From NCBI GenBank assembly GCA_035314825.1, contig DATFYX010000086.1, positions 1 to 33,417 on the forward strand: 33,417 nucleotides of DNA, read 5' to 3'. The position numbers and the translations under genes were made by a program. Source of the stretch: Candidatus Eremiobacteraceae bacterium. Lineage in GTDB: Bacteria; Vulcanimicrobiota; Vulcanimicrobiia; Eremiobacterales; Eremiobacteraceae. This document shows, in pieces, positions 10,076 to 32,632 of the stretch (position 1 is its first letter; every line of letters begins with the position of its first letter). The notes below the pieces were generated by a model, which worked only from the letters and a program-made list of their open reading frames with translations, did no database searches and was not told the DNA's origin.

Positions 10076-10213
10076 GCCCTCAAGAAAGCGACGCATGCGG
10101 GTCATACGGACGCGCGGCGCCCGCTCCTGCTTGCGGCCGTCAGAAACGCTGAGATAGCTTTGTCCGGGGGAATCCGCCACCGTACACGCAGAACCACGGG
10201 TGGGAGGGTTCGC
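10076..10213. promoter_or_regulatory. Divergent intergenic region between phosphoesterase and aminotransferase genes
   Basis: The 138 bases separate two divergent genes and must hold promoters for both. I see no strong -10/-35 pair, no riboswitch fold and no repeat. It is slightly less GC-rich in the part near 10140-10165. Nothing more can be supported. Confidence 0.4.
10202..10208 (+). promoter_or_regulatory. Ribosome-binding site deciding the aminotransferase start
   Basis: GGGAGGG lies five bases before the ATG at 10214. The reading frame continues upstream to 10046 through sequence that is antisense to the phosphoesterase gene; this Shine-Dalgarno sequence argues for 10214. Confidence 0.75.
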
Positions 10214-17022: not shown

Positions 17023-17129
17023 GACCGTCAGGGTTCGGACCCGCGGCGGCGCCTGCCTACCGCGCAGGGCGGTGTCGCGTTGCGACATAACTACGCGCCT
17101 GGGGCAAAGCCGGGGGAACGGCCGACGAT

Positions 17130-18176
17130 TTGACCACACAACGGTTCGTGGTCGTGATACCCGTGGCGCGGTATCACGAACGCCTAGCGCGATGTCTGGA
17201 AGCGTGCTCGCGATTGACGTACGAGCCGCGCACTATCTGCGTGGTCTCCGACGACCCGCTTGAGCTTCCGCACGATCAGCATTTCATCAACGTCGTCACC
17301 GGCGCCGGCGGACTGACCGGTCCGGGCGCCAAGCGCGACCTCGCGACTCTCGCGTGCCCTGATGCCGGCGTCTACGCCTATCTCGACGATGACGCGTATC
17401 CTCCACCGCAGTGGCTCGATGAAGCCGCCGCCGTATTGGATCAACACCCGGATGCAGCAGGGGCCGGCGGCCCTGGGTTGATGCCCGACGATCAGACCTT
17501 TTGGGAACGAGTGAGCTCGGCCGTGCTTGGGTCACCCGCGGGTAGCGGTCCCTTGCGCTTCCGATTCGTATTGGAAGCCGCGCGCGACTGCGACGATTTT
17601 CCCGCCTATGATATGTTCGTGCGCCGGCCGTGGCTCACGTCCGTCGGCGGGTGGGCGACGAACTGGTACGGCGGTGAGGATACGACGCTGTGCGCGCGGC
17701 TTGCCGATCGAGGCGGTTTGCTGCGCTACGACCCGCGCCTTTTCGTCTTTCACTACCGCCGGCCGTTGTGGCCGGCGCACGCGTGGCAGATCTACAACGT
17801 CGGACGCTCGCGCGGCTGTTTCATACGCGCCAAGGACTCGCGCTCGAGGCGGCTCGCCTTTGCCGGCCCGTTCGCGTTTCTGGCCGGCGTGCTCGGCTTT
17901 GCGCTGCTGCCCTTCTCCGGAGTGCCGGTCGCAGTGGCGCTTGGCGCAGCGGCGTGCGCGTACACGGCGCTCGCGCTGCTGGGGAGCACGCCGTCGGACG
18001 ATTGGCGGGTACGGCTATTGACTCCGTTGGGCCTTATCATCCATCATGCGGCGTATGCGGCCGGTCTGACACTCGGGCTTCTCACTGGGAAGCGCACGGT
18101 GCGCGGAGAGGACATCACGCGATCCGCGTCTTGGTCGACCGAACGGTCTCCCACGCCGAATTCCGGACCGGGCTAG
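17130..18176 (+). CDS. Family 2 glycosyltransferase with C-terminal membrane segments
   Basis: A GT-A fold family-2 glycosyltransferase. The 348-residue product begins at a TTG (17130) with VVVIPVARYHERLARCLEA, the standard first strand. YLDDDAYPPP (near residue 88-97) carries the nucleotide-sugar and metal-binding Asp residues. GGEDTTLCARLADRGG is the acceptor-site E-D motif of the family. After residue 240 there are two or three hydrophobic segments (AGPFAFLAGVLGFALLPF and ALGAAACAYTALALL) so the protein is membrane-associated. A G-rich stretch upstream (gggggaacgg) may be the ribosome-binding site. The last 20 codons overlap the convergent glycosyltransferase gene by 62 bases and look poorly conserved. 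Donor and acceptor are not identifiable. Confidence 0.83.
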   Translation: MTTQRFVVVIPVARYHERLARCLEACSRLTYEPRTICVVSDDPLELPHDQHFINVVTGAGGLTGPGAKRDLATLACPDAGVYAYLDDDAYPPPQWLDEAAAVLDQHPDAAGAGGPGLMPDDQTFWERVSSAVLGSPAGSGPLRFRFVLEAARDCDDFPAYDMFVRRPWLTSVGGWATNWYGGEDTTLCARLADRGGLLRYDPRLFVFHYRRPLWPAHAWQIYNVGRSRGCFIRAKDSRSRRLAFAGPFAFLAGVLGFALLPFSGVPVAVALGAAACAYTALALLGSTPSDDWRVRLLTPLGLIIHHAAYAAGLTLGLLTGKRTVRGEDITRSASWSTERSPTPNSGPG

Positions 18177-18981
18177 GCAGGCTGCTCGAAATCGTATACA
18201 TCAGGGCCCAGCACGCGGCGCGCGCGGGCTTGCGCGCCGCGGTCGCCAAGACGGCGCTTGCGAGTACGTGGAAGGGAGTCGCCTCGACCCCGTAGCCGCG
18301 CCGTAGTTGGCGTTCTCCCTCGAGCACGCGCCGCGAGACGCGCCAGTAGTCGGCAAACGTCGTAGCGGGGTTGAGCTGACAGCGGGCCTCGGGGACGTAC
18401 ACGATCGTCCCTCCTTTGCGGAAGATGTGCATCGCGAGGTAATGGTCATCGTTGATGATCTCGGGTGGAAGCTCGGCGTCGGCAATCGTGTCGCGGGCGA
18501 AAGCGAGGAGATGTCCTACCGCATAGTGGCGGAGATACTCGCCGGCCTTGAGCCGCTCGATGACGGCAAAGGCGAAGGACGATGCCAGTGCCGGCACGGT
18601 GATTCGCCTGAGCAGCGGCTCTTGTGCGCCGACCGCTAGGGACGCCCCGCTCTCGATCGCATCGGCTAAGAGCCGGATTGCGCCGTCGCAGACGCGCACA
18701 TCCGCGTTGATGCGCAGTATCGCGTCGCCCCGTGCGGCCTTCAGCAGATGTGTGACTGCGCCGGCGCAGCCGACCCGCATGGTGCCGCGGATGACCCGAA
18801 CCCTGGGCGCACGGGTAGCGATCTCCTCGACGATGGTCGCCGTTTGATCGGTCGACATATCGTCGTAGACTACTATTTCGGTCAATGCGTGCACGCCAAG
18901 GTCCGCTGCGAGCAGCGACTCGAGCAGAGGGCCGATGTTGGCGGCCTCGTCGCGCGCCGGGATCAAGATACTGATATTCAT
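18115..18981 (-). CDS. Family 2 glycosyltransferase
   Basis: A second GT-A family-2 glycosyltransferase, 288 residues from the ATG at 18981. Conserved parts are MNISILIPARDEAANIGPLLESLL (the first strand and helix), VVYDDMSTDQTATIVEEI, RINADVRVCDGAI where N-A-D replaces the usual D-x-D, and IINDDHYLAMHIFRKGG with the acidic acceptor motif. The D-x-D being N-A-D is a variant also known in other family-2 enzymes, so activity is not ruled out. It is transcribed away from the large GT-C-like gene starting 58 bases to the right, and its 3' end overlaps the plus-strand glycosyltransferase. No clear membrane anchor is visible apart from weak hydrophobic stretches near residue 150 and 265. Confidence 0.82.
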   Translation of the reverse strand: MNISILIPARDEAANIGPLLESLLAADLGVHALTEIVVYDDMSTDQTATIVEEIATRAPRVRVIRGTMRVGCAGAVTHLLKAARGDAILRINADVRVCDGAIRLLADAIESGASLAVGAQEPLLRRITVPALASSFAFAVIERLKAGEYLRHYAVGHLLAFARDTIADAELPPEIINDDHYLAMHIFRKGGTIVYVPEARCQLNPATTFADYWRVSRRVLEGERQLRRGYGVEATPFHVLASAVLATAARKPARAACWALMYTISSSLPSPVRNSAWETVRSTKTRIA

Positions 18982-19038: not shown

Positions 19039-22000
19039 GTGCGCCGTATCGACTGGTACCTGGTTCTCTTGTGGTCGCTCGTCCTCATACCCGCGGCTTG
19101 GATATTCCGAGACTGGCTGTTCTCGCTGCGGACGATCGCCTTCGCGGACTGGCCATATCTCGCACCGCAGACGATGGCAGACTTTTGGCCTATGCGCGAG
19201 GGCTGGATCGCATACAACGGCGTCGGCTTTAGTTCCGCCGCGTCACTGCCGGGCTTCCTACTGGATGTACTGTGCGGGCTCGCCTCGCTCGCGCACATCC
19301 CATTCGAAGTTTTCGAGCGCGCCGTCTATTTCGTGCCGGCGTTCATCATCTGCCTCGCGGGAACGTACGCGCTCACGCTTGAGCTGACGCACAGCAGAAC
19401 CGCGGCGATCGTCGCGAGCGCCTTCTCGATCTTCAACGGCTACGGCCTGCGCATCTTGGGGCTCGGCCAGGTGTCGATATTCGTCGCGGCCGGCCTGCTG
19501 CCGGTGTTCGCCTTGCTCTTCATCAAACTCATGCGTGGGGTCACGCCTCCCCGCGTCGCCGGTATGATCGCCGTCTTCGGAGCGATGTTGGCGTACGATC
19601 TTAGAATCGCATACGTCGCCGTGCTCGTCGGGCTCATGATGGGAGCCGGCTATCTCGCGCTCCAGCACCTGCGCGCATTGCCGTCGTTGGCGGGCATAGG
19701 TGGATCGATCGTCGCGGCCGTCCTGTTCGTGCATGCGGCGTGGGTGCTTCCCTCGCTATACTACCACAAGCTCGAGCCGAAGCTGCCCCCAGGATTTGAT
19801 GCGCGCGGCTGGTTCGACGTGCTCAGCTATTTCACGCTGCCCGAAGCGCTGACGCTGTACCATCAATGGAAGATGCCCGGCTATGGGACCGCCTACCCGC
19901 CGGTGCTTCCGTATATCGTCTTGTTCGCGCTTGCGCTCATGCCGATATTGCTGCGTCCTCGGCGACCGTGGGTCGTGGGGCTTACCGGCATGGCGTTGCT
20001 GTTCGCCATGCTCATGAAAGGCGCACGCCCACCGTTCTCAGAGCTAAGCACGTGGATATTCCGGCACGTGCCCGGCATGTACGGCTTCCGCGACCCAAGC
20101 AAATTCGCTGGCGTCATCGTCTTCGCGGAGGCGGCGCTGATCGGCTACGCGACGGTCCTGCTCGGAGGCGTCTTCCCGCGCTTCGCGCGCGTCTTTCCAA
20201 TCGCCGCGATCGCGCTGGTCCTCGCCGCGCACGGCTATGCTTTCTCGCGCCAGATCGGCGGGGCGATCCGCGCGCGCGACGTTCCACCCGAGTATACCGA
20301 GCTCATAGAATATATCACCAACGATACGCGCTTCTCACGCGTCGTATGGATGCCGCGACGCGCGACGTTTCACGTGCGAACGCGCGAGCATCCGATTGTC
20401 GAAGCGCTGGCCGACCTTCCCGGTCCGCTCTACTATTACACCAACAATAATGAAGACAACACGTGGGGGCTAGGCTGGATCGAGCAGCCGTATTCAGGCT
20501 GGCTCATGCGCGATCTAGACGTCGGGTATTTCGTCGTTCCGGACGAGAGAATCGACGACCAGGCATTCGCCGCCGGCTGGACGCCGCGCGCCCATGTCGC
20601 GACCTCGCTCGACCGCTTGCCGTGGCTCGCGTTCGACCGCAAGTTCGGCGGCATCGACGTGTACCGCGTGAAAGATCCGCTCCCGCTGGTGACGGGGTCT
20701 AGCGCCGCGATTCTCATGCGCGATGCCTCGCCGGCCGACCTGCGGCACTTCAAGAACGCAGCGCTTCCGGAGGGCGCGCTTGACGCGCCGACATTGACCC
20801 TTTCCTCTTCCGCTAGCCCGCCGCCGGACGTCGTTGACGTCGACCTAGGCGACTCGACGCCCGGCGCACGCACCTCGTCGCATCTATGGTACGGAGGTGA
20901 CGCGCTTGCCGTGCTCGCGTATGGTGCGACCGATATCGGCCTCGTCGGCGCCGAACGTGCGGCGGATGGCGGGCTCACGCTTTCAGCCGCTCGAGGTTTT
21001 TTCCCGAGCGACAGCATGATCGCGCAGCCCGCGGCCGGTCCTTCATCGGTGGTGACGCTCTCCACGCGCGTCAAACCGTCCGGCGGCGTCTCGCGATTTT
21101 CGCTGACGATCTACTGTGCCGAGGACCAGTGGACGGGAATGGGTTGTGCAGATGGGTATGCTCTCGAATGGGCCCGCGACGCGCGCCTCGTGCGATATCG
21201 TTATGGGAAGCCGACGGTACTGGCGGTATCGCAGCTGCCGCTGCGCGACCAGCAATGGCATGACATCAGATTGACCATCAGCCACCCGGACATCGGTACG
21301 CAGCTGCTCAGCGCGACGCTCGACGGCAGCACCGTCGCACATGCCGACACGGGCGATCAAATCGTCTATCGAGGTCGTGTGGCGATCACGACCACCGGTG
21401 GCGACGTCGAGCTGGGCGGCGCGCCGGCGATCGCCGGTGAGTGGCCGGCACCGATCTTCGACTCGTTGCAGCCGACCCTGGCACGCGAGAGCTTCACCGT
21501 GACCGAACCTGTGGAGCTGTCGCCCTTCCCCATAGGCGCCGCGTCGCCGATCGCCCGCGTTCCGCTGCTTGACGCCAATATCTCCGTAGGAGCGAGCGCA
21601 TCCTCACGCACGCCATGCGGCGCGCCGGCTGGCGCGCTGATCCGGCCGCCATTCGAGGCGCCACTGTTCGGCAAACCGCTGCTTGAGTGGCGGAAACTTG
21701 ATGGACCCGCCCCCTCGTGGATCGGCCTCGTTCTCCGCGACGGACAAGGCGAGGTATCATGCGTCGTCCTGCCGATCGAGCCGCAGACCCGTACCGTCGA
21801 TGTCCAATCGTACATCGCGCTCGAAAACGCGGCAGGGCAGACTGACGCCGCCCGCGCGCGTCCCAATGCCTCATCGTTGATGATCGCGTATCCGCATCCG
21901 GCGCCGGCCGACGATTTCATACTGACCGGCATCGCGCTCGCAGTTGCGCCTGCCGGCGCGCACGAGTCGCTTCATCTCTCGCTAGACATCGAGCGAAGCG

Positions 22001-22791
22001 CGCTCAAGTCAGACGTCGTCTTCGAAAACAACGTTCGCATTGCGGCCCCCGCTGGCCGGCTCGTCGCTGCGTGCGCGGCGCTGCCGGCTTCGGCGTTGGA
22101 CTTCGCTGTGCCGGGCAGTCGATGGACAGCGCGCGCTCCCATGCTGCTCATGGGAGCGCGGGAGATCGCCGGTGTTGACCTTGCGCGCGCGGACGAGCTC
22201 GCGCAGACGCCTTCATACCTGGTCGGCATCGCCCCCCCGCAACGACCTGATGAGGTCGCGCAAGTCGTCACGCGATTGAGCGCGGCGTCGCCCCTTCAGG
22301 CGGGCACGTGCACCTACCGTCCGCGCGACCACGCGCAAACCCCGGAGATCCGCATCGACGACCGGATCTACGATGCGGGGCGCAAGCTCACGCCTGGAGC
22401 GCACGTCATCCGCACAAGTGATGCCCCGTTGCCGCCGCGCGCATCCGGCCTATTGCTCGCGACCCCGACGCTGTTGCACGTCCGCTCAATTCCCGTCACC
22501 TTTGCACAGCTCGAGGGTCTGCATTATCGCGCCGAGGTACCGTCAGCGCCGGCATGGATCGTGTTCCGCCAGGGTTACGACGCCGGGTGGGTCGCGCGCG
22601 CGCGGGGCGGAGCGTTGCTCCACTTGCCCGCCGACGACGTGTTCAACGCCTATTACGTCGACCGGCCCGGGACTGTGGACATCGAGTATGCGCCGCGCAG
22701 GCTCGCGGTCGCCGGCCAGAGCATCTCAATCGTGAGCGCCACCCTGCTGACGATCTATCTTCTATCTCTGCTGTGGAAGCGACGGAGCTGA
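19039..22791 (+). CDS. Very large GT-C/YfhO-like membrane protein with a LamG-like domain (paralogue 1)
   Basis: A predicted membrane glycosyltransferase of the GT-C superfamily, 1250 residues from the GTG at 19039. The first helix (7-22) is followed by an outside loop with AFADWPYLA (Asp37-Trp38), the usual place of a GT-C catalytic Asp. Ten or more hydrophobic segments follow to about residue 420, with FRDPSKF at 350-356. The C-terminal two thirds are extracytoplasmic. Residues about 655-800 resemble a LamG/concanavalin-like sandwich (SRFSLTIYCAEDQW, then WHDIRLTI and GRVAITTTGGDVELGG). A YfhO-like segment (GYDAGWVARARGG, then DIEYAPRR) precedes a final helix and a KRRS tail. The start is uncertain: a GTG at 18985 is also in frame. 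It resembles arabinofuranosyltransferase AftD and YfhO in layout only, and no exact family is claimed. Confidence 0.75.
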   Translation: MRRIDWYLVLLWSLVLIPAAWIFRDWLFSLRTIAFADWPYLAPQTMADFWPMREGWIAYNGVGFSSAASLPGFLLDVLCGLASLAHIPFEVFERAVYFVPAFIICLAGTYALTLELTHSRTAAIVASAFSIFNGYGLRILGLGQVSIFVAAGLLPVFALLFIKLMRGVTPPRVAGMIAVFGAMLAYDLRIAYVAVLVGLMMGAGYLALQHLRALPSLAGIGGSIVAAVLFVHAAWVLPSLYYHKLEPKLPPGFDARGWFDVLSYFTLPEALTLYHQWKMPGYGTAYPPVLPYIVLFALALMPILLRPRRPWVVGLTGMALLFAMLMKGARPPFSELSTWIFRHVPGMYGFRDPSKFAGVIVFAEAALIGYATVLLGGVFPRFARVFPIAAIALVLAAHGYAFSRQIGGAIRARDVPPEYTELIEYITNDTRFSRVVWMPRRATFHVRTREHPIVEALADLPGPLYYYTNNNEDNTWGLGWIEQPYSGWLMRDLDVGYFVVPDERIDDQAFAAGWTPRAHVATSLDRLPWLAFDRKFGGIDVYRVKDPLPLVTGSSAAILMRDASPADLRHFKNAALPEGALDAPTLTLSSSASPPPDVVDVDLGDSTPGARTSSHLWYGGDALAVLAYGATDIGLVGAERAADGGLTLSAARGFFPSDSMIAQPAAGPSSVVTLSTRVKPSGGVSRFSLTIYCAEDQWTGMGCADGYALEWARDARLVRYRYGKPTVLAVSQLPLRDQQWHDIRLTISHPDIGTQLLSATLDGSTVAHADTGDQIVYRGRVAITTTGGDVELGGAPAIAGEWPAPIFDSLQPTLARESFTVTEPVELSPFPIGAASPIARVPLLDANISVGASASSRTPCGAPAGALIRPPFEAPLFGKPLLEWRKLDGPAPSWIGLVLRDGQGEVSCVVLPIEPQTRTVDVQSYIALENAAGQTDAARARPNASSLMIAYPHPAPADDFILTGIALAVAPAGAHESLHLSLDIERSALKSDVVFENNVRIAAPAGRLVAACAALPASALDFAVPGSRWTARAPMLLMGAREIAGVDLARADELAQTPSYLVGIAPPQRPDEVAQVVTRLSAASPLQAGTCTYRPRDHAQTPEIRIDDRIYDAGRKLTPGAHVIRTSDAPLPPRASGLLLATPTLLHVRSIPVTFAQLEGLHYRAEVPSAPAWIVFRQGYDAGWVARARGGALLHLPADDVFNAYYVDRPGTVDIEYAPRRLAVAGQSISIVSATLLTIYLLSLLWKRRS
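22132..22160 (+). repeat. Perfect 12-base-pair hairpin inside paralogue 1
   Basis: cgcgctcccatg and catgggagcgcg are exact inverted repeats around the loop ctgct. It encodes Ala-Arg-Ala-Pro-Met-Leu-Leu-Met-Gly-Ala-Arg, an almost mirror-symmetric peptide, in the extracytoplasmic part of the protein. No second copy was noticed. Confidence 0.55.
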
Positions 22792-23171
22792 TGCGCGCGG
22801 TCGCCGGCCTGATCGCTCTCACTGCGCTTGCTCTTGTCGCGCTCGTCGCCGTGCGCGCGTTAGGGGCCGGCCATGAGAGCGGCGCGATGCAAGCAGCGCA
22901 AACTGTAGCAGCGTTCGTCGCGGCGCTGGCGGGTGCCATCTGGCTGCGGTGCGACGACGCGCTAACGCGAAGCGCGATCACCGTCGGCGGCATCTTGGTC
23001 TGCGCCGGCTTTGCTCTGTACGAGGCATCGCAAGGACTCTATGACGTAGCCGCGCTTCCGCTCGCCAGCGCGGGGACTTACGTGCTGCTGGCGGGATGCG
23101 CCACTGCGACCTATACGTTGATTGCAGGGATACCGGAAGGCCAGCGGCGAGACAGCAGCATCCATGAGTGA
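22791..23171 (+). CDS. Small four-helix membrane protein, unknown
   Basis: I do not recognise a family. The 126-residue product is nearly all hydrophobic, with four likely membrane segments at about residues 3-25, 35-52, 63-80 and 87-113, and a short polar C-tail (PEGQRRDSSIHE). The ATG at 22791 shares one base with the stop codon of the large gene before it (TGATG), with GGAG five bases upstream, and the gene's own end overlaps the next start by 8 bases. Its place between a giant GT-C-like protein and a glycosyltransferase fusion suggests an accessory membrane subunit, for example a GtrA-like or EamA-fragment-like helper that moves lipid-linked sugar, but I see no specific motif. An in-frame GTG at 22773 is a possible earlier start. 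Confidence 0.7.
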   Translation: MRAVAGLIALTALALVALVAVRALGAGHESGAMQAAQTVAAFVAALAGAIWLRCDDALTRSAITVGGILVCAGFALYEASQGLYDVAALPLASAGTYVLLAGCATATYTLIAGIPEGQRRDSSIHE

Positions 23172-25137
23172 GGCACTCCCGCGCTACTCAATCATCATTC
23201 CGGCGCATAACGAGCAGGACCGCATCGGACCGGTCGTGAGCGATTATCTCGGGTCATTCCAGGACTCCGAGCTGATCGTCGTGCTCAACGGCTGCACGGA
23301 TGCGACGCAGGAACGGGTTCGCGCGGCGTGCGACGGCCGCGGCGACGTCCGTCTCATCGCGCTGCCGCTGGCCGTGGGAAAGGGCGGCGCGGTGCGCGCC
23401 GGTATGATGGTCGCGCGCGCGCCGATCGTCGGGTTTGTCGACGCCGACGGTTCGACGTCGGCGACGGAGATGCGCCGGCTGTGCGAAGCGCTGGGCGACG
23501 CTGACGGGGTGATCGGATCGCGCTGGCTCGAAGCGTCGGTGGTGCGGGTGCCGCAGACCCGCCTGCGGCGTTTCGCGAGCCGGACGTTCAACGCGCTCGT
23601 ACGCGTGATGTTCGGCCTGCCGTTTTCCGACACGCAGTGCGGCGCCAAGGTGTTCCGCGCAGACGCACTGCGCCCGATCCTCCATCGCCTCGAGACGGCG
23701 AATTTCGCGTTTGACGTCGATCTGCTCTTACTGCTGTCGCAGTCGCGTCGACGCATCGTCGAGATGCCGACCGTCTGGGAAGACCGGACGGGCTCAAGCT
23801 TGCGCGTCGTGCCGAGCTCGATGCTCATGCTCGCAGCGCTTGTGCGCCTGCGCTTGCGCCACTCTCCATTTCATCCGTTCGTGCCGTGGCTCGACCGCGT
23901 CGTGCCCACAAAGCCGCTGCGTATGCGCGACCATTTGCGGATACTGATCCTGAACTGGCGCGACATCCGCCACCCGCAAGCAGGCGGAGCAGAGCTTTAT
24001 CTGCATGAGATCGCTCGGCGCCTGGTTGCACGCGGTCAAACCGTCGCCTGGCTCACGTCTGGGTTCCCTGGCGCGCCGCGTCACGAGGTCATCGACGGCG
24101 TCTCCATCACGCGCACCGGCAATGCGCTCACCGTGTACCTCGCGGTGCCGCTCGAGTATCTGCGCTCCTGCATCGACCGCTTCGACCTCATCATCGATTC
24201 CGAGAACGGCATCCCGTTCTTCTCGCCGATGTTCTCGTTGAAGGCGAAACTGTGCGTGATGTACCACGTGCATCGCGAGGTCTTCTTGACGCAGCTGCGA
24301 CCGCCGCTGTCGTGGCTGATGGCGTGGATCGAGACCCGCGTGATGCCCTTCGTCTATCGCCACGTCACGTTCGTCACGATCTCGGAGAACACGCGCGACG
24401 AGATGCAACGCTTGCGCCTGACGCGCCGCCCCATCTTCGTGGTACCGAGCGGCGTGGACCACCTTCTACAGCCCGGGACCAAGGCGGCTCAGCCCACGAT
24501 CCTCTATCTCGGCCGCCTGAAGCCGTATAAGCGTATCGATCTGCTCATGCGCGCGTTTGCGCGCCTCCGTGCACAAGTGCCAGGGGCGCAGTTGCGGATC
24601 GCCGGGCGGGGAGAGGATGCGGCGCGGCTTCGCGCCCTCGCTGACGAACTGGAGCTGAGCGGATCGGTGACTTTCGAAGGCTTTGTCGACGAAGATCACA
24701 AGCGCGAGCTGCTGCAGCAAGCGTGGGTCTTTGCGACCGCATCGTTGGTGGAAGGATGGGGCATCTCGGTGATCGAGGCCAACGCCTGCGGCACGCCCGC
24801 CGTGGCGTTCGACGTCCCAGGTTTGCGCGAGGCGATCGTCGACGGCGTCAGCGGTATCATCGTGCCGGACCATGGCACGCTGGTCGAGGATCTTGCGGAC
24901 GCACTTGCCGCCATCCTGACCGACACAAAGCGCCGGGAAGCGCTGACGTGCGGCGCCGTCGAGCGCGCCGCGACCTTTTCATGGGATGCGGCGACAGATG
25001 CGCTGCTCGCCATCATGTCGCACCAATTCGTCGAGGGTGATTCCGGCGTGGTTCTCAACGAGGGCGTGTGGCATCTCCCGCAACCGCCCGCGGACGACGG
25101 AACGCAGGCGTCGGAACCTTCGCGGACCATTCGTTGA
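23164..25137 (+). CDS. Fusion glycosyltransferase: GT2 (polyprenyl-P-sugar type) plus GT4
   Basis: Two catalytic domains in one 657-residue protein. Residues 1-250 form a GT2 domain: YSIIIPAHNEQDRIGPVV, GKGGAVRAGM, FVDADGSTSATEMRRL, and SDTQCGAKVFRADAL, the last being typical of dolichyl- or polyprenyl-phosphate glucosyltransferases (ALG5-like). A second domain follows from about residue 258 (LRILILNWRDIRHPQAGGAELYLHEIARRL) and is GT4: ILYLGRLKPYKRIDLLMRAF, then EGWGISVIEANACG with the two Glu residues eight apart. The first domain would make a lipid-phosphate sugar, a GT-C donor; the second would transfer a sugar from a nucleotide donor to a lipid-linked chain. There is no transmembrane helix in the first domain. 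The start overlaps the small membrane gene by 8 bases and the stop shares a base with the next start (TGATG). Confidence 0.87.
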   Translation: MSEALPRYSIIIPAHNEQDRIGPVVSDYLGSFQDSELIVVLNGCTDATQERVRAACDGRGDVRLIALPLAVGKGGAVRAGMMVARAPIVGFVDADGSTSATEMRRLCEALGDADGVIGSRWLEASVVRVPQTRLRRFASRTFNALVRVMFGLPFSDTQCGAKVFRADALRPILHRLETANFAFDVDLLLLLSQSRRRIVEMPTVWEDRTGSSLRVVPSSMLMLAALVRLRLRHSPFHPFVPWLDRVVPTKPLRMRDHLRILILNWRDIRHPQAGGAELYLHEIARRLVARGQTVAWLTSGFPGAPRHEVIDGVSITRTGNALTVYLAVPLEYLRSCIDRFDLIIDSENGIPFFSPMFSLKAKLCVMYHVHREVFLTQLRPPLSWLMAWIETRVMPFVYRHVTFVTISENTRDEMQRLRLTRRPIFVVPSGVDHLLQPGTKAAQPTILYLGRLKPYKRIDLLMRAFARLRAQVPGAQLRIAGRGEDAARLRALADELELSGSVTFEGFVDEDHKRELLQQAWVFATASLVEGWGISVIEANACGTPAVAFDVPGLREAIVDGVSGIIVPDHGTLVEDLADALAAILTDTKRREALTCGAVERAATFSWDAATDALLAIMSHQFVEGDSGVVLNEGVWHLPQPPADDGTQASEPSRTIR

Positions 25138-27422
25138 TGCTTCGCTCACGTGAGCTTCTGGCGGTCGCGGCAGCCGCCGCGGTGTTCTGTGCGATCGCGT
25201 ACCGGTCGTTTCTCTATTCCCCGGGCACGCCGAACTTCGCGCACGATTGGGCGTGGTCGCCCGTGGCCGCACAGATCGTCGATCTGTTCCATTCGCGGAC
25301 AAGCTTCTCGCGGCTCGATTCGCTCGGCGGCCCGAACACCGATGTGGCGGCCTATCCGGCGCTTTTCCTTGCGGCGCTTCCGGCGCCGCTTCTCGGCAGC
25401 AGCGCGGCTCTCAAGTTCTTCCTTCTCTGGACGACCATCGCAGCGGCGGTGGGGGCCGCAGCGCTAGCGCGGCTCTGCGGCGCCGATCGCGCGAGCGCAG
25501 TCCTCATCGGATTAGCCTACGCGGCCGGCCCATATGCGTTCAATAAGATCGTCAGCGGACAGGTGACGGTCTGGCTCGCCTATGCGGCACTGCCCTTCGC
25601 ATTGTGGGCGATCACGTCAGCGCGGGATCGCAATATTCTGTTCACGGCCGGCGCAGTCGCGCTACCGCTCGCGCTGATAGCGCCTCAGTTGCAGATATTC
25701 GCGGTGTCGTTGGTCGCACTTATCGCGGCCGGCGCGGTACTCGCAGGTCTGCGAGGCGCACTTGCGGCGTGCGCGGCTGGCCTGCTGGCCGCCGCCACGC
25801 AAGCGCCGCTGGCCCTCGAGCTGCACAACGCGTTGGGTGCGGATGTGTACGGCCAGTTCTTGGCGCGCAGTCCATGGGAACTGATCCAAAGTCCGCCGCT
25901 TCGGCTCGCGCTGCGACTTGATGGCTACTTCACGCAATCCTACGCGCTCGCGACCATCGGCCTCCATCACGCCGCCGCCGTCGCCTGCTACGCGTTCGCC
26001 GCGCTGGCATGGCTTGGGCTTTTCGTGCGCCCCGGTTCGCGGCGAGCCGGCTGGATCGCCGCAGCGGGCGCGGCATCCATCCTCGCCGTCGTGTGCTCCT
26101 ATCATCTACCATGGAAAAGCGTGGCAGACAATATCTTCCTGAACGTTCCGGCTGCCACCGTCTTCCGCGAGCTATACGACCTGATCGCGCTGCTGGCCGT
26201 CGCCTACGTCATCGGCGCCGCGCGTGCCACCGGTATCACATTCGTCCGGTTCGCAGTCTGGGGCGCGACGTTGCTCGTGATCGCGGTCGGCTGCTTAGCC
26301 CGGTACGACACGGTGCTCGGTGCCAGCGACCTGCGCCCGCACGTCACCGCATTCGATGCATTGGCTGCGATGCCGGGCGACGACCGGATCTGGCCCGTGC
26401 CCAACGGCCGCTTCCTGAAGGCCACTGCGCGCGACGCAGGCGGATTCGATCCGTTCTTCGGCCGCGCGGGCGCTCATCCGATCGTCGAGGAGTACTTCCC
26501 GACCGGGCCGGTAGCCGTCGCGCGTATGCTGCCGCTCGGGTGCGCGGGGCCGCTCCTGCGCGCGATGCGCGTGCGCTATATCTGGCAGCGGCTTGACCTT
26601 GCGCGCTCCGCTGAGGCTGTGTCGCCGGTGGGGCCACTGAGATCGCCGATGTGCGCAGGCGCTTTGCGCGCGACGCGCGTCTACTCGAGCCCCACCGATT
26701 CGCTCGAGCAGATCGATGCGGTGCCCGCAGCGCACCGCACGATCGACAACGTCGACATCGTGCCCGACGATTGGCTCGACGGATTGACGTCATTGGGCGG
26801 CGGGCACGACTTCGTCTTCGCGCGCGACGCGCGCGCGCTCGGCGTACACGAGTCTGAGATTGAGCCGCCACTCGATGACCGCCGCTTCGTCGACCCCCAC
26901 GACGGGCCGGTCACGGCGAGCCTTTTCGGCGGCACGGGCGTTGCGTTCGTCGAGCTTGCAGGCGGCGCCAGCATCGTCGCTGCGCCGGCACTTGCGCACA
27001 TCCAGGTGAGCCCCTCGGCGAGGTTTGTCTACGACCGCCGCGCCGCCCGGTACAAACTCGCGTTGTGCGAAGAATCGTTTGACTGCGTCGAAGGCGGCAG
27101 CTTCGCGTTGTTCGGGCCGGCGTTGCGCGATCCAACCGTGCAGACGCGGGCGCTCTCGCTCGGCAGCGATCGCATGCTCGTCGTCGACACGCAATTCGAT
27201 CCGGCGCTGCGTGCGCGGGCCGGCGGCCGCGATCTTCTCCATGTCCGCGTCGACGGTTATGCCAACGGGTGGCTCGTGCCGGCCGGCGATGAGAGCGACG
27301 TCGCGATCTCCGACGGAAGAGTTGGAGGGCTTGTGGCAGCCTGGACGCTTGCGGTTGTCGCCTGGCTTTGCATCGCGGCAGCTCTGGCGGGTGGTGCGCT
27401 GCGCGCTCGAGCGGCGGCATGA
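25137..27422 (+). CDS. Large GT-C/YfhO-like membrane protein (paralogue 2)
   Basis: A 761-residue polytopic protein, the smallest of three look-alikes. It starts with one helix (7-25), then an outside loop with NFAHDWAWSP, where Asp37-Trp38 falls at the same residue number as in paralogue 1. Multiple helices continue to about residue 400, with VFRELYDLIALL at 342-353 in place of the FRDPSKF motif. The remaining part is a soluble extracytoplasmic domain that ends in a YfhO-like DGYANGWLVPAG and one last helix (AAWTLAVVAWLCIAAAL) with a basic tail. The ATG shares a base with the stop of the glycosyltransferase fusion. The loss of Pro, Ser, Lys in the middle motif suggests a different acceptor or a changed role. 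Sugar transfer outside the membrane is inferred from layout, not from a known family. Confidence 0.72.
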   Translation: MLRSRELLAVAAAAAVFCAIAYRSFLYSPGTPNFAHDWAWSPVAAQIVDLFHSRTSFSRLDSLGGPNTDVAAYPALFLAALPAPLLGSSAALKFFLLWTTIAAAVGAAALARLCGADRASAVLIGLAYAAGPYAFNKIVSGQVTVWLAYAALPFALWAITSARDRNILFTAGAVALPLALIAPQLQIFAVSLVALIAAGAVLAGLRGALAACAAGLLAAATQAPLALELHNALGADVYGQFLARSPWELIQSPPLRLALRLDGYFTQSYALATIGLHHAAAVACYAFAALAWLGLFVRPGSRRAGWIAAAGAASILAVVCSYHLPWKSVADNIFLNVPAATVFRELYDLIALLAVAYVIGAARATGITFVRFAVWGATLLVIAVGCLARYDTVLGASDLRPHVTAFDALAAMPGDDRIWPVPNGRFLKATARDAGGFDPFFGRAGAHPIVEEYFPTGPVAVARMLPLGCAGPLLRAMRVRYIWQRLDLARSAEAVSPVGPLRSPMCAGALRATRVYSSPTDSLEQIDAVPAAHRTIDNVDIVPDDWLDGLTSLGGGHDFVFARDARALGVHESEIEPPLDDRRFVDPHDGPVTASLFGGTGVAFVELAGGASIVAAPALAHIQVSPSARFVYDRRAARYKLALCEESFDCVEGGSFALFGPALRDPTVQTRALSLGSDRMLVVDTQFDPALRARAGGRDLLHVRVDGYANGWLVPAGDESDVAISDGRVGGLVAAWTLAVVAWLCIAAALAGGALRARAAA

Positions 27423-30025
27423 GGCTGTTCGCGCTCCGGCGCGCCGACGCGCTGGCGCTTGCCCTGCTTGCCGCAGTCGTCTTGGCCATCCACTGGCGTT
27501 GGTTCTTGCCCGGTGTGATCACCGATCAGGATTGGCGGGTGTACTCCGCGGCGCAGCTGCATGCGTTGTTCCCATCGCCCAGCGTGTTCGACCTCACCAT
27601 GAATCTGGGCGCCGACAATCGCGATTCGATCAACTTCTATCCGATGATCAGCCTCATGGCGTTAATCGCACGCCTGGGCGCCTCGCCAGGCCTCGCGGTC
27701 CGCCTCGTCGTGATGTTCCCCACCATCGTGTTGCTCGCGGCCGGCGGTTACATCTTCGCGCGTACCTACGTGACTAGCGTGTTGGCGAGCTGGTTGGCCG
27801 GGGCGTTCTACGCTTGCAACGCCTATGTCGACGTCATCATCGGACGCGGGCAGATGACCGTTGCCGAGTCCGCTGCGTGGTCGGCGATCGCGCTTGCAGC
27901 GTGCGTTCGCGCGGTCCGGCCCGGTGGCCGCGCACGCGACGCCGCGCTGGCGGCGCTGTGTCTGGGATTGGCATTCGTGTGCGACGTGCGGATCGCGCTG
28001 CTCGCGTGTACGGCCGCGATCCCGCTGTGCGCGATCGAGCTGCGACGCGATTCGCTGGCCGGACAGCTTGCGCGCGGAGCGGCGATCGGCGGGGCGCTCG
28101 CGCTGCTGCTGTTGTATACACTTATCCCGACGCTGGCCTCCCACTTGCAGTTCTCGCCGCCATCGGACTTCGGCGATGCCGGTTGGCTTTCGCGCCTGAG
28201 CTTCACCTCGCTCGCGCAAGCGCTCACCTTCGACCATCCGCTGTGGTACGACAACGCCGTGCACACGTGGCGCTGGAAGTTCGCGATCTTCCTCGTACCC
28301 GTGGTGGTCGGATTCTGGGTGATGCTGCGCGATCCGGAGCAGCGGCCGCGCGCCGGCGTCATGCTCGCGCTTGTCGCGGCCGGAGCGGTGTTTGTGGCCG
28401 GCACGCTCACCTGGTTCGGTCCAGTGTACGTCTGGCTTTTCATGCACACGTGGTATGTGCATCTGTTCCGCGACCCGTCGAAGTTCACCGTCTTGATGCT
28501 GCCGGGCTACGCGCTCGCATTCGGCACCGGCGCGGCCGCTATCGTCGCATGGATGCCGCGGCGCTGGATGCAGGCGGTGGCCGTCGCCGCATTCATCGTG
28601 CTCGCGCTGTGGCCGTCGCGACCGATCTTCACCGGTGCGCAGACGCAGCTCTATTGGCCCAAGCAACCCGCTGCCGATGAAACGCTCCTCGCGCAGACCC
28701 TGAGCGCCGATCCGATTCCGTCGCGCGTGCTGTGGACACCCATTCCGGATCGATTCATACCGCCCGATGATCGGCACCCGGCAATCGACGCGCTCTGGTT
28801 CGCGCAGATCGCCGTCGATGGTGTCAGCTCGTTGTCCGACAGCCAACGGCTCGCGCGAGCGCTGCGCTCGCTGGGCATCGGCTATGTGGTGGTGCTGCGC
28901 AACGAGAGCGCATCGCTCGCCTATCCGCCCACGTACGTCGCGTATCGGACCATCCGGACCTACGCGGCGCTCGGCGCGTTCGGCGTGCCGCTGTTCGACG
29001 GCCCTGCGCTGAGCGTGTTCAAAGTCGGCGGGGTGATGCGCTTTTCCGCCGACCCGGCGCTGGCAGGCCTGCGCGTCAATGCTCTGCAGATCCCGTCCGT
29101 GCGCGACGGTGTGTCGGCAGGGCCCGTCCTGAGAGCTCCCGTCCGCATGACGGCGCGCGGCGCCGTTTCCGGTGCATGGCTCGTCCCCGTGCCGTCAGGC
29201 GTCCGCGGTGCGCGCGATCCAGCGCTCGTCGCGGCGCGTCCGCCGCGCGATACTTTGTTCGCGTCGAAAGGCGCGCTTCGCCTGGACGGCCTCGTGCCCG
29301 AACGAGAAGGCGCTGTCGTCGTCGATCCGTACGGCGCCCTGCTGGATGTACCGGATTGGACCGGGTACGTCGACGTCGGTATCCGGGTCAGGCGCGTCGG
29401 CGCGGCGCGTCCCTACCTCTTACTGAGGACGCAGGACAGAGCGTTCGGCTACGAGATCCGAGGAGTTTCGCGCCCGGGTGACTATCACGTCATGCTGCCG
29501 GCCGAAGACGTTCCGCGCACCGTTCGTGTGCGCGCGAGCCCACCCGCGGACATCAGCATCGAATCGTCCGCTTTTGTGCCGGCCAGTTATCACGGCTTGA
29601 TCGACCCGGCTGCATTGGCGCGCGCGCGGCCGACTCGAACAATCTCCATCCTCATACCGCTGGCCGCTGCGGTCGCGGCGGACGGCGCACACGACACCTT
29701 TACGACTCTTCCGTTGCAGACCGTCCGTCAGTTTCCAGCAATGCTGGCCGGATCGGGGCGAGTCTCGGGCACGCTCGCAGGGCCTATGTCGGCGTCGCCG
29801 CTCTGGTCGACGGCTCCAGCACCCGATGCTCGCGCGGCCCGCGCGCCTTCGCGCAGCCTCGGCGACTTCGCAGCTGCAGATCTGCCGCCTGATGCTGCCG
29901 GCGTGACCTTCGAGTACTCGGTCGATCGCCAGTTGGCGTTAGGCGAGATCCTCTCGCTGCTCGCAGCGCTCGGTCTGATCGCATGCATCATGTTCGATCC
30001 AGGAGCGCGCCGTGCGGGCGAGTGA
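27419..30025 (+). CDS. Large GT-C/YfhO-like membrane protein (paralogue 3)
   Basis: An 868-residue polytopic membrane protein, starting at an ATG that overlaps the previous stop by 4 bases (ATGA). Helix 1 is followed by VITDQDWRVYSAAQL with Asp38-Trp39, aligned with the Asp-Trp of the two related proteins. About ten further helices follow. The motif VHLFRDPSKFTVLMLPGY puts FRDPSKF at residues 350-356, exactly as in paralogue 1. After about residue 400 a long extracytoplasmic domain follows; the last helix is GEILSLLAALGLIACIMF and the tail is basic and short. Residues 540-720 look like beta-rich sequence. No exact family is claimed. Tandem placement and matching landmarks make ancient duplication with paralogues 1 and 2 the simplest reading. 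Confidence 0.75.
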   Translation: MRLFALRRADALALALLAAVVLAIHWRWFLPGVITDQDWRVYSAAQLHALFPSPSVFDLTMNLGADNRDSINFYPMISLMALIARLGASPGLAVRLVVMFPTIVLLAAGGYIFARTYVTSVLASWLAGAFYACNAYVDVIIGRGQMTVAESAAWSAIALAACVRAVRPGGRARDAALAALCLGLAFVCDVRIALLACTAAIPLCAIELRRDSLAGQLARGAAIGGALALLLLYTLIPTLASHLQFSPPSDFGDAGWLSRLSFTSLAQALTFDHPLWYDNAVHTWRWKFAIFLVPVVVGFWVMLRDPEQRPRAGVMLALVAAGAVFVAGTLTWFGPVYVWLFMHTWYVHLFRDPSKFTVLMLPGYALAFGTGAAAIVAWMPRRWMQAVAVAAFIVLALWPSRPIFTGAQTQLYWPKQPAADETLLAQTLSADPIPSRVLWTPIPDRFIPPDDRHPAIDALWFAQIAVDGVSSLSDSQRLARALRSLGIGYVVVLRNESASLAYPPTYVAYRTIRTYAALGAFGVPLFDGPALSVFKVGGVMRFSADPALAGLRVNALQIPSVRDGVSAGPVLRAPVRMTARGAVSGAWLVPVPSGVRGARDPALVAARPPRDTLFASKGALRLDGLVPEREGAVVVDPYGALLDVPDWTGYVDVGIRVRRVGAARPYLLLRTQDRAFGYEIRGVSRPGDYHVMLPAEDVPRTVRVRASPPADISIESSAFVPASYHGLIDPAALARARPTRTISILIPLAAAVAADGAHDTFTTLPLQTVRQFPAMLAGSGRVSGTLAGPMSASPLWSTAPAPDARAARAPSRSLGDFAAADLPPDAAGVTFEYSVDRQLALGEILSLLAALGLIACIMFDPGARRAGE
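30001..30005 (+). promoter_or_regulatory. Ribosome-binding site of the GT4 gene inside paralogue 3
   Basis: AGGAG lies six bases before the GTG at 30012, within the last codons of the preceding gene. It supports the GTG start and a 14-base gene overlap. Confidence 0.65.
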
Positions 30026-31268
30026 CGCGCGCGTTCTCTTCGCGCCGGCGCACTATTTCACGGGCGCAGACGTCGGCGGCAGCGAATTTTGCTGGCCCTA
30101 CCAGATCATCGCGCACGTCGCGCCGCGCGTGTGCGCTGCCGACGTCGTCCTCGGCGAGCTGCGCAACGGCTCGTTCGGCCCGAACGTCGCCGTTCACGAG
30201 GTGCTGCCGGTCGCCCGCCAGCATTTGTTCTCGGTGGGCACGGCGGCAGCGTTCATGTCGGGCTACTGGCGCAGCGCTCTCGCGATCACGCGGCGCGACG
30301 TGCCCGACATCCTCCACCATGTCCTGCCCTTCTCGCCGATCACGTTCAACCCGCTCATCCTATTCCGCCACACGCCGCTGGGCGTGCCGGCGCGCACGCG
30401 CATCGTGATCGGTCCGGTGCAGATGCCGCACGATGAAATGCTTGGCGGCACCGCTGAGGACATCGGGTCGCTGTATCGCCGCGAGTTCGACGCGCCCGTC
30501 CAGGCGATGCGCGGTGCACGCCGCCGCCGATTGATCGGTGCGCTGACACACCGCCTGTCCGACCGCTGCCTCAACGCGGCACACGCAGTGGTGGCGATCA
30601 CCGATGAGACAAGAGCCTATCTGCAGGCGCGCGGGATACGATCGCCGATCACCGTTATCCCGGCCGGCATCGACTACCGCCGTTTCGACGTGGTCGACCG
30701 CTCCGCTCGCACAACTCCGTTCACGCTGCTGTCCGCTTCGTATTTCGTGCAGCGCAAGGGGATCGATCTGCTGCTGCGCGCGGTCGCACTCGCGCGAACA
30801 CGCGCTGAGGTGCGTCTGATCCTCGCCGGGGACGGCCCGCAACGCGCGAACCTGATCGCGCTGCGCGACGATTTGGACCTGGGCGATGCGGTGCAATTCG
30901 CCGGATTCTTGGACGAGAACGCGCTGCGCGCGCAATACGCGGCCGCTGACGCGCTGGTAAGCATGTCGTGGTCCGAGAGTTTCGGCATGTCGCTGCTCGA
31001 AGCCATGGCGACGGGCATGCCGTGCATCTCGACAGCCAACGCCGGCGCTCGAGCGCTGATCGAGGACGGCCGCACCGGCCTACTAGCGCCGCTCGGCGAT
31101 GCGGAGAGATTCGCTGCGGCGATCGAGCAGCTCGCTTCTGATCGCGTTCGCGCGCAGGCGCTTGGCCTGGCCGCGCGCGCGTCAGTCGAGTCGCGCCATG
31201 ATTGGACGTCGATCGGCGCCGCATACGTGGCGCTGTACGAAAGCCTGCTCGACACGACGCCGCGCTGA
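30012..31268 (+). CDS. Family 4 glycosyltransferase (GT-B fold)
   Basis: A 418-residue retaining glycosyltransferase using a nucleotide-sugar donor in the cytoplasm. The N-terminal domain begins VRASDARVLFAPAHYFTGADVGGSEF with the glycine-rich acceptor-side loop. The C-terminal donor domain has VIPAGIDYRRFDVVDR, LLSASYFVQRKGIDLLLRAV, LILAGDGPQRANL and the ESFGMSLLEAMATG motif with the two Glu residues eight positions apart. The GTG start is supported by AGGAG six bases upstream. The 44-base gap to the next gene contains no ribosome-binding site of note and is the only real spacer in the operon after 22791. Chain-lengthening of a surface glycan is the likely use; the sugar is unknown. Confidence 0.87.
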   Translation: MRASDARVLFAPAHYFTGADVGGSEFCWPYQIIAHVAPRVCAADVVLGELRNGSFGPNVAVHEVLPVARQHLFSVGTAAAFMSGYWRSALAITRRDVPDILHHVLPFSPITFNPLILFRHTPLGVPARTRIVIGPVQMPHDEMLGGTAEDIGSLYRREFDAPVQAMRGARRRRLIGALTHRLSDRCLNAAHAVVAITDETRAYLQARGIRSPITVIPAGIDYRRFDVVDRSARTTPFTLLSASYFVQRKGIDLLLRAVALARTRAEVRLILAGDGPQRANLIALRDDLDLGDAVQFAGFLDENALRAQYAAADALVSMSWSESFGMSLLEAMATGMPCISTANAGARALIEDGRTGLLAPLGDAERFAAAIEQLASDRVRAQALGLAARASVESRHDWTSIGAAYVALYESLLDTTPR

Positions 31269-31312: not shown

Positions 31313-32632
31313 ATGCACACGATCGGCGTCATCGGTTCCGGGTATGTCGGCCTGGTGACCGGCGCGTGTCTTGCCGAGCTCGGCAACTCAGTGATGTGCG
31401 TCGACGTGGACGCCGCGCGCATCGAGACGCTCACCGGTGGCCGCCTTCCCGTCTTCGAGCCGGGCCTCGCAGAACTCGTCGAACGCAACCGCCACGCAGG
31501 CCGGCTTGAGTTCAGCGCCGACATCACCAAAGCCGTTCGCGGCCGCGATGTGATCTTCGTCGCCGTCGGCACGCCCGCCAGCGCGAACGGCGGACTGGAT
31601 GTCAGCGCGGTTCGTGCGGCGGCAGCCTCCATCGCGCGCGCGCTCGACGGACCGAAGATCGTGGTCAACAAATCGACGGTGCCGGTCGAGACGGCCGGCC
31701 TGGTCAGGGAGATCATCGAGCAGACCAAGACCGCAGCTTTCGACGTCACCGTGGTCTCCAATCCTGAGTTCTTGCGCGAGGGTTCGGCTATCTCCGATTT
31801 CATGGATCCCGACCGCATCGTCATCGGCTCGTCGGATGCGCGCGCCGAAGCGGTCATGCGCGAGCTGTACAAGCCGCTCGATGCGCGCATCATCGTCGTG
31901 GACGAACGCGCTGCAGAACTGATAAAGCTCGCAGCCAACGCGTTCTTGGCGCTCAAGCTGTCCTATGTCAACGAGATCGCGCAGATCTGCGACGAGGTCG
32001 GAGCTGATATCGAAGACATCGTCGCAGGTGTCGGCAGCGACTCGCGCATCGGCGAGACATACCTGCGCGCCGGACTGGGCTTCGGAGGCTCGTGCATCCC
32101 GAAAGACGCGCGCGCGCTCCACGATCTGGCCGCGTCGCACGGCATCGATGCGCATATGCTCGCCGCCGCCCTTGACGTCAACCGCGGGCAGATCGGACTG
32201 ATCGTGGAGCGGCTCGGTCAAGCGCTCAACGGACTGGATGGGCGCGCCGTCGCCGTGCTCGGCCTCGCGTTCAAGCCGGAAACGGATGACGTCCGCGAAT
32301 CGCCCGCTGTGGCGCTTGCGAGCGCCCTCGTCAACGCCGGCTGTGAAGTACGCGTGCACGATCCCGCAGCAGTCGGGCAAGCTCGCGCCGCGCTCGGCGC
32401 ATCGGTCGACTACGCCGCTTCGTGGCAAGATGCGGTGCGAGATGCCGACGCCGTCGTCGTCGCCACTGACTGGAACGAGTACAAGCAGCTCGATTTCTCG
32501 GTGATGCGCGCGCGCATGCGCGGACGCGTGATCGTCGACGCGCGCAACATCTACGATCCGGCGCAGCTCGCGGACCAAGGGTTCACGCACATCGGCGTCG
32601 GCCGCGGCCGAAAGGGCCGGCAGAGAGCCTGA
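31313..32632 (+). CDS. ugd: UDP-glucose 6-dehydrogenase
   Basis: Ugd oxidises UDP-glucose to UDP-glucuronate with two NAD per turnover. The 439-residue protein shows the Rossmann GSGYVGLVTGACLAELG (8-24), FEPGLAELVERN, FVAVGTPASANGGLD, NKSTVPVETA, NPEFLREGSAISDF, and the catalytic block LGFGGSCIPKDARAL with Cys261 and the following Lys. The C-terminal UDP-binding half has GLAFKPETDDVRESPA, also typical. The gene follows the GT4 gene by 44 bases and its stop codon overlaps the start of the UDP-glucuronate decarboxylase by one base, so product is handed directly on to UDP-xylose. The frame extends upstream to 31202 over the end of the GT4 gene, but ATG at 31313 gives the standard N-terminus. 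Confidence 0.95.
   Translation: MHTIGVIGSGYVGLVTGACLAELGNSVMCVDVDAARIETLTGGRLPVFEPGLAELVERNRHAGRLEFSADITKAVRGRDVIFVAVGTPASANGGLDVSAVRAAAASIARALDGPKIVVNKSTVPVETAGLVREIIEQTKTAAFDVTVVSNPEFLREGSAISDFMDPDRIVIGSSDARAEAVMRELYKPLDARIIVVDERAAELIKLAANAFLALKLSYVNEIAQICDEVGADIEDIVAGVGSDSRIGETYLRAGLGFGGSCIPKDARALHDLAASHGIDAHMLAAALDVNRGQIGLIVERLGQALNGLDGRAVAVLGLAFKPETDDVRESPAVALASALVNAGCEVRVHDPAAVGQARAALGASVDYAASWQDAVRDADAVVVATDWNEYKQLDFSVMRARMRGRVIVDARNIYDPAQLADQGFTHIGVGRGRKGRQRA

What the first reader, a model, noticed from the sequence alone, without database searches (positions are those of the whole stretch)
19039..30025. Three giant GT-C-like membrane proteins in one operon with shared landmark residues
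Proteins of 1250, 761 and 868 residues share one layout: helix 1, an outside loop with Asp-Trp (residues 37-38, 37-38 and 38-39), about ten helices, an FR-(D/E) motif (350, 343 and 350), a large outside domain and one last helix. FRDPSKF occurs at 350-356 in two of them. The operon also has a GT2-GT4 fusion able to make lipid-linked sugar, a small membrane protein, a GT4 enzyme and UDP-GlcA/UDP-Xyl synthesis. A multi-enzyme machine building a pentose or uronate glycan on the outer face of the membrane would fit. I do not recognise this exact gene set as a described system.
Basis: partly seen in the sequence, partly recalled or inferred. Interest (0 to 1): 0.72.

Follow-up and report, generated by a model that had tools for sequence, protein, structure and literature searches.

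The report
AftD-like membrane glycosyltransferase trio in Eremiobacterota
This uncultured soil bacterium carries three large, related membrane enzymes, distantly kin to the enzymes that build the tuberculosis cell wall, which probably add sugars to a surface glycan outside the inner membrane; versions of the set recur across its whole bacterial class, but the glycan is unknown.

Summary
Three intact ORFs (1250, 761 and 868 aa) lie at the stated places with the stated landmarks. They are homologous: BLASTP links all three pairs, and profile comparison aligns the EL1 Asp-Trp and the FR motif. AlphaFold models of GTC1 (residues 1-620, pTM 0.81) and GTC2 (low confidence) both match GT-C enzymes in the PDB, with mycobacterial AftD first. 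Twelve of 32 GTC1-type relatives match Pfam GT-C_AftD, although the window's own proteins match no Pfam family. The window belongs to Candidatus Eremiobacterota. GTC1-type genes occur in 53, and GTC2-type in 70, of 117 genomes of the class; 17 of 24 genomes with strong hits to both carry them within 15 kb. A coupled polytopic membrane protein usually follows GTC1. Best reading: an AftD-like multi-component transmembrane glycosylation locus, in which a polyprenyl-phosphate-sugar synthase (GT2 half of the fusion) supplies donors and the GT-Cs transfer sugars to an envelope glycan at the periplasmic face. UDP-GlcA and UDP-Xyl enzymes are present, but UGD lies in only 9 of 52 related loci, so a pentose or uronate product is not established. 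The Asp is the family feature, the Trp is not. New variant of a known kind.

The parts
19039..22791 (+). GTC1: 1250-aa AftD-like GT-C membrane protein; catalytic-type Asp37 (DW), FRDPSKF 350-356, large periplasmic region with a weak laminin-G-like stretch (719-800), C-terminal beta domain and last helix
22791..23171 (+). SMP: 126-aa, 4-helix membrane protein overlapping the GTC1 stop; candidate partner or lipid-sugar flippase (no family match)
23164..25137 (+). GT2-GT4 fusion, 657 aa, no TM helix: N-half resembles polyprenyl-phosphate glycosyltransferases (ArnC, DPMS, PpgS), C-half GT4
25137..27422 (+). GTC2: 761-aa GT-C membrane protein, divergent member of the class-wide GTC2 family (D37-W38, FRELYD 343-348)
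27419..30025 (+). GTC3: 868-aa GT-C membrane protein of the GTC1 type (D38-W39, FRDPSKF 350-356)
30012..31268 (+). GT4 glycosyltransferase, 418 aa
31313..32632 (+). UDP-glucose 6-dehydrogenase (TuaD-like UGD)
32632..33417 (+). UDP-glucuronate decarboxylase (UXS), cut by the contig end
   Evidence: UXS1 8e-77, next family 6e-39
18115..18981 (-). GT2 glycosyltransferase, divergent from GTC1; membership of the system uncertain
17130..18176 (+). GT2 glycosyltransferase with two C-terminal helices (MftF-like); membership uncertain
15403..17088 (-). MurJ, the only strong MurJ match in the genome; syntenic with GT-C loci in relatives, probably housekeeping

Best explanation
The three proteins are paralogous GT-C (GT-CA-type) glycosyltransferases of the AftD/MmpA-like group, forming an extracytoplasmic glycosylation locus. 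Inferred order of events: (1) cytoplasmic enzymes make nucleotide sugars (UGD and UXS give UDP-GlcA and UDP-Xyl). (2) The GT2 half of the fusion loads a sugar onto a polyprenyl phosphate; the GT4 half and the GT4 enzyme build further sugars on a lipid or glycan inside. (3) A flippase, possibly the 4-helix protein coupled to GTC1, turns the lipid-sugar to the periplasmic side. (4) GTC1, GTC2 and GTC3 each bind a lipid-phosphate-sugar. The Asp after TM1 acts as base or nucleophile, and the invariant Arg of the FR motif sits at the site, perhaps holding the phosphate. (5) The sugar is passed to an envelope glycan gripped by the large periplasmic domains. Shown by computation: homology, GT-C fold, conserved Asp and Arg, neighbours. 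Inferred: activity, donor, flippase, acceptor and order. The sugar is unknown.
For: Foldseek against PDB: GTC1 model first AftD 6wby E=5e-7, TMq 0.56; all seven matches at E<=0.001 and all of the first nine (AftD, AglB, STT3/OST, AftA, PglB, ArnT) are GT-C enzymes. GTC2 model first AftD 6w98 E=1.3e-6. Sequence link: 12/32 GTC1-type members match PF11847 GT-C_AftD (best 1.1e-16) and 11/32 match MmpA. GTC1 and GTC2 of the window match MmpA at 2.8e-8 and 2.1e-5. Catalytic Asp at the tip of JM helix 1 is the defining residue of GT-CA enzymes (PMC12041299); here Asp37, invariant in GTC2 orthologues and nearly so in the GTC1 type. Conserved gene pairing: 17 of 24 genomes with strong hits to both have them within 15 kb. 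A GT2 related to the fusion's N-half is in 30 of 52 loci, and three loci carry the fusion itself. GT2 half resembles ArnC and DPMS. UGD and UXS identified.
Against: No biochemistry; no ligand in the models. The GTC2 model is of low confidence (pLDDT 59). MmpA, a family relative by sequence, has a reported transport phenotype rather than a transferase activity. No GtrA-type flippase in the operon. Window GTC2 differs at many positions fixed in its orthologues. The N-half of the fusion lacks TM helices and is only a weak match to any one characterised enzyme.
Confidence: 0.72

Rival explanations
1. Non-catalytic, MmpA-like use of the fold: the proteins are scaffolds or carriers that hand a glycolipid or lipid-linked glycan across or off the inner membrane, their periplasmic domains binding the cargo.
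For: The only NCBIfam hit of GTC1 and GTC2 is MmpA, needed for trehalose-lipid transport in C. glutamicum (PMC8698533). Window GTC2 departs at 34 near-fixed columns.
Against: The EL1 Asp and the FR Arg are retained in all three. Twelve homologues match AftD, an arabinofuranosyltransferase. MmpA's own biochemical activity has not been established.
Confidence: 0.13
2. Oligosaccharyltransferase-like: the GT-Cs move a whole Und-PP-linked oligosaccharide to a protein or lipid, as PglB/STT3 do, rather than single sugars from polyprenyl monophosphate.
For: AglB, STT3 and PglB are among the structural matches. In genus g12 the locus holds an initiating phosphoglycosyl transferase (PF02397) and MurJ.
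Against: AftD ranks first for both models. A polyprenyl-phosphate-type GT2 is the most recurrent neighbour (30 of 52 loci). The window has no PF02397 gene; the genome's only one lies on another contig.
Confidence: 0.1
3. Specifically a pentose or uronate glycan system (a narrower form of the best explanation): UDP-Xyl or UDP-GlcA is loaded on the polyprenyl phosphate and the three GT-Cs assemble or decorate a xylan- or uronan-like chain.
For: UGD and UXS follow directly in the operon and recur in several relatives (9 of 52 loci have UGD). The nearest structure is a pentosyltransferase.
Against: Most related loci lack UGD; the most conserved version has aminotransferase and dehydrogenase genes. 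Known pentofuranose systems use a phosphoribosyl synthase of the UbiA kind; none lies here, and the two UbiA genes of the genome are on other contigs (PMC11127046).
Confidence: 0.3

Closest known systems
AftD (mycobacterial arabinofuranosyltransferase, PF11847, PDB 6W98/6WBY)
   Same: Best structural match of both models; GT-C domain first, then large periplasmic region; relatives of GTC1 match its Pfam model
   Different: Window proteins themselves miss the Pfam model; one last helix where AftD has five C-terminal helices (as described in PMC8698533); no decaprenyl-arabinose pathway gene recognised in the operon
MmpA (NF053599; NCgl2761/Rv0226c)
   Same: Sequence similarity over residues 102-455; same TM domain
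   Different: MmpA is about 500 residues with a smaller extracytoplasmic domain; score 33 bits against a cut-off of 210; role reported is trehalose-lipid transport
Three-component / multi-component transmembrane glycosylation systems (CsbB-GtcA-YfhO; GtrA-GtrB-Gtr)
   Same: Lipid-phosphate-sugar-synthase-like GT2, small polytopic protein and GT-C in one locus
   Different: No YfhO (PF09586) or GtrA (PF04138) match in the operon; three GT-Cs in one operon; GT2 is fused to a GT4 and has no TM helix
GT136 pentofuranosyl systems (Citrobacter youngae ORF12, PMC11127046)
   Same: GT-C with a periplasmic beta-rich domain acting on a flipped lipid-linked donor
   Different: No polyprenyl-phosphoribose synthase or PRP phosphatase seen here; sequence relation to GT136 not tested

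Membership tests
GT-C (GT-CA) fold glycosyltransferases | Polytopic GT-C fold matching solved GT-C enzymes | tested here: met
   GTC1 model pTM 0.81, all 7 PDB matches at E<=0.001 are GT-C; GTC2 likewise with lower model confidence; GTC3 by homology only
GT-C (GT-CA) fold glycosyltransferases | Catalytic Asp in the first extracytoplasmic loop after TM1 | tested here: met
   Asp37/37/38, 26/26 in GTC2 orthologues, nearly all GTC1-type; catalytic role not tested
AftD | Match to PF11847 over the gathering score | tested here: not met
   Window proteins: no match; but 12/32 GTC1-type relatives match at E<=0.01, best 1.1e-16, so kin, not a member
AftD | C-terminal set of five TM helices after the carbohydrate-binding modules | tested here: not met
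   One C-terminal helix in each protein; AftD layout as described in PMC8698533
AftD | Carbohydrate-binding modules in the periplasmic part | tested here: inconclusive
   Laminin_G_2 at E=0.2 in GTC1 719-800; GTC1 beyond residue 620 was not modelled
AftD | Arabinofuranose transfer from decaprenyl-phosphoarabinose | not testable with these tools
   needs biochemistry
MmpA | NF053599 equivalog cut-off 210 bits | tested here: not met
   32.8 and 23.3 bits
YfhO | PF09586 match | tested here: not met
   none in the genome, controls positive
Three-component glycosylation system | GtrA-type flippase | tested here: not met
   SMP has no PF04138 match; the genome's GtrA is on contig C64
Three-component glycosylation system | GT2 making polyprenyl-phosphate sugar | tested here: inconclusive
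   GT2 half resembles ArnC, DPMS and PpgS; activity untested
GT136 pentofuranose system | UbiA-type polyprenyl phosphoribose synthase in the locus | tested here: not met
   UbiA genes only on contigs C31 and C2

The most novel reading that the evidence does not exclude
Eremiobacteria make a class-specific envelope glycan with a dedicated, paired set of AftD-like GT-Cs (GTC1 and GTC2) plus a coupled 4-helix membrane subunit that works as a new kind of lipid-sugar flippase: an arabinogalactan-like assembly line in an LPS-type diderm outside the Actinomycetota.
Probability: 0.22. Interest if true: 0.72.

Novelty: new variant of a known kind. Interest (0 to 1): 0.45.

Why it matters
It widens the AftD-like GT-C group, known from the mycobacterial cell wall, to a diderm candidate phylum, and names a class-wide unannotated family (GTC2, no Pfam match in 27 members) with invariant residues ready to mutate. 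A cultivated member of the phylum exists (Vulcanimicrobium), so the glycan could be analysed. The conserved GTC1-membrane-protein-GTC2 gene order gives a concrete candidate for the unknown flippases of such systems.

Tried and rejected
YfhO membership (no PF09586 in the genome). Direct sequence search of PDB with single proteins and profiles gave only chance hits, so structure comparison was needed. SMP as GtrA, rejected by Pfam. SMP as one homologous family across genera: phmmer finds homology only within genus g12, so only the position is conserved. MurJ as a dedicated flippase, made unlikely because it is the genome's only strong MurJ match. UXS named by NCBIfam was ambiguous and was settled by PDB search. 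Relatives through genome contigs gave 11 loci, ten titled Eremiobacterota and one an unnamed MAG. Outside the class only one marginal GTC2 hit in the phylum. Spread beyond the phylum was not tested. Literature search for GT-C or AftD-like systems in this phylum found nothing relevant.

Full report
What is there. The window is contig C86 (G000:C86:1-33417) of a 2.55-Mb, 97% complete genome. Named relatives of its proteins come from Candidatus Eremiobacterota, apart from one record titled only 'bacterium'. The three ORFs stand at the stated coordinates with the stated landmarks and no internal stops. Around them on the + strand run SMP (22791-23171), a GT2-GT4 fusion (23164-25137), a GT4 (30012-31268), UGD (31313-32632) and UXS (32632 to the window end). 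Genes overlap by a few bases, which fits one operon. Upstream lie two GT2 genes, MurJ and an RmlD-like reductase.

Common origin. BLASTP joins all three pairs (1e-12, 9e-6, 7e-5). Profile comparison of GTC1/GTC3-type with GTC2-type gives 98.7% probability over 425 columns, with the DW loop and the FR motif in register. The tail (beta domain and last helix) is shared by GTC1 and GTC2 and is not detectable in GTC3. A tree of 88 relatives separates a GTC2 side from a GTC1 side (98%). GTC1 and GTC3 of the window fall in one 14-row GTC1 group (99%) but are not each other's nearest rows. Window GTC2 is a long branch outside the core GTC2 orthologues (quick search, long branches uncertain).

Fold. 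The GTC1 model (residues 1-620; pLDDT 76.5, pTM 0.81) matches AftD first (6wby, E 5e-7, TMq 0.56), then AglB, STT3, AftA, PglB and ArnT. The weaker GTC2 model (pLDDT 59, pTM 0.65) also matches AftD first (E 1.3e-6). Sequence supports this through intermediates: no window GT-C protein reaches a Pfam cut-off, but 12 of 32 GTC1-type relatives hit GT-C_AftD (best 1.1e-16) and 11 of 32 hit MmpA. MmpA itself was reported to share partial homology with the AftD N-terminus (PMC8698533).

Landmarks. GT-CA enzymes carry an essential Asp at the tip of the first juxtamembrane helix; in AftB this Asp is essential and two Arg residues are proposed to hold the leaving phosphate (PMC12041299). Here Asp37 fits the first. 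It is kept in all GTC2 orthologues and nearly all GTC1-type proteins, with a one-residue register shift in one genus. The Trp is fixed only in GTC2. The FR Arg is invariant (32/32, 27/27). Giving it the phosphate-holding role is inference; I had no coordinates to measure distances.

Neighbourhood. GTC1-type genes are in 53 of 117 genomes of the class and GTC2-type in 70 of 117. In the phylum sample outside the class, only one genome gives a marginal GTC2 hit. Of 24 genomes with strong hits to both, 17 have them within 15 kb; several of the rest lie on short contigs. In genus g12 the usual order is: deoB, phosphoglycosyl transferase (PF02397), MurJ, polyprenyl-P-type GT2, GT9, GTC1, small polytopic protein, GTC2, DegT aminotransferase, Gfo/Idh oxidoreductase, GT2, epimerase-type gene (families identified on one representative, L090). 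The gene after GTC1 overlaps or nearly touches it and encodes a polytopic membrane protein in most loci: 3-4 helices in five including the window, 7-10 helices with internal repeats in most of genus g12, 13-15 helices in others. These proteins match no Pfam family. Thirty-eight of 52 loci carry two or more GT-C genes.

Donor side. The GT2 half is nearest ArnC, glucosyl-3-phosphoglycerate synthase and dolichol-phosphate-mannose synthase among solved structures and AglJ/PpgS among NCBIfam models. UGD is TuaD-like. UXS is firmly identified (UDP-glucuronate decarboxylase 8e-77, next family 6e-39). So UDP-GlcA and UDP-Xyl can be made here, but only 9 of 52 related loci have UGD. I therefore keep the sugar open.

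Acceptor side. The genome has LpxC and two Wzy_C-family proteins, and the cultivated member of the phylum is Gram-negative with an LPS-covered outer membrane (PMC9758169). An LPS O-chain or another envelope polysaccharide is the natural candidate; nothing here decides it. The window's MurJ is the only strong MurJ match in the genome, so it is probably the lipid II flippase rather than part of this system.

Verdict. Parts, fold and conservation are well supported; function is inferred from family knowledge. [quoted passage not shown] It is not a member of AftD, MmpA, YfhO or GtrA by their own cut-offs.

Noticed in passing
22791-23171 and L090:10343-11188, L092:9834-10226, L109:7491-7925: The gene after GTC1 is mostly a start-stop-overlapping polytopic membrane protein; in genus g12 it ranges from 4 to about 10 helices by internal repetition, as if a dimer-forming unit had been fused in tandem. 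Outside that genus only the position, not the sequence, is conserved.
   Followed up: partly
25137-27422: Window GTC2 differs at 34 columns that at least 25 of 27 aligned GTC2 proteins share, yet keeps D37, W38, R344 and E345; the two same-genus genomes have ordinary GTC2 genes, and no GTC1-type gene was detected in them.
   Followed up: partly
L018:1532-3493, L027:8711-10675, L105:11088-13130: In several relatives the partner after GTC1 is a 640-680 aa protein with 13-15 helices and no Pfam match; possibly a polymerase or flippase.
   Followed up: no
23164-25137, L025 and L124: GT2-GT4 fusion proteins occur in three of the 52 loci only (window, L025, L124).
   Followed up: no
11553-13046: 497-aa protein without any Pfam or NCBIfam match, next to a sugar epimerase.
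   Followed up: no
8714-11440: 908-aa phosphoesterase-family protein (PF04185).
   Followed up: no
L025:8961-10787: A PQQ/BamB-type beta-propeller protein lies inside a GT-C locus of a relative, directly after a GT2.
   Followed up: no
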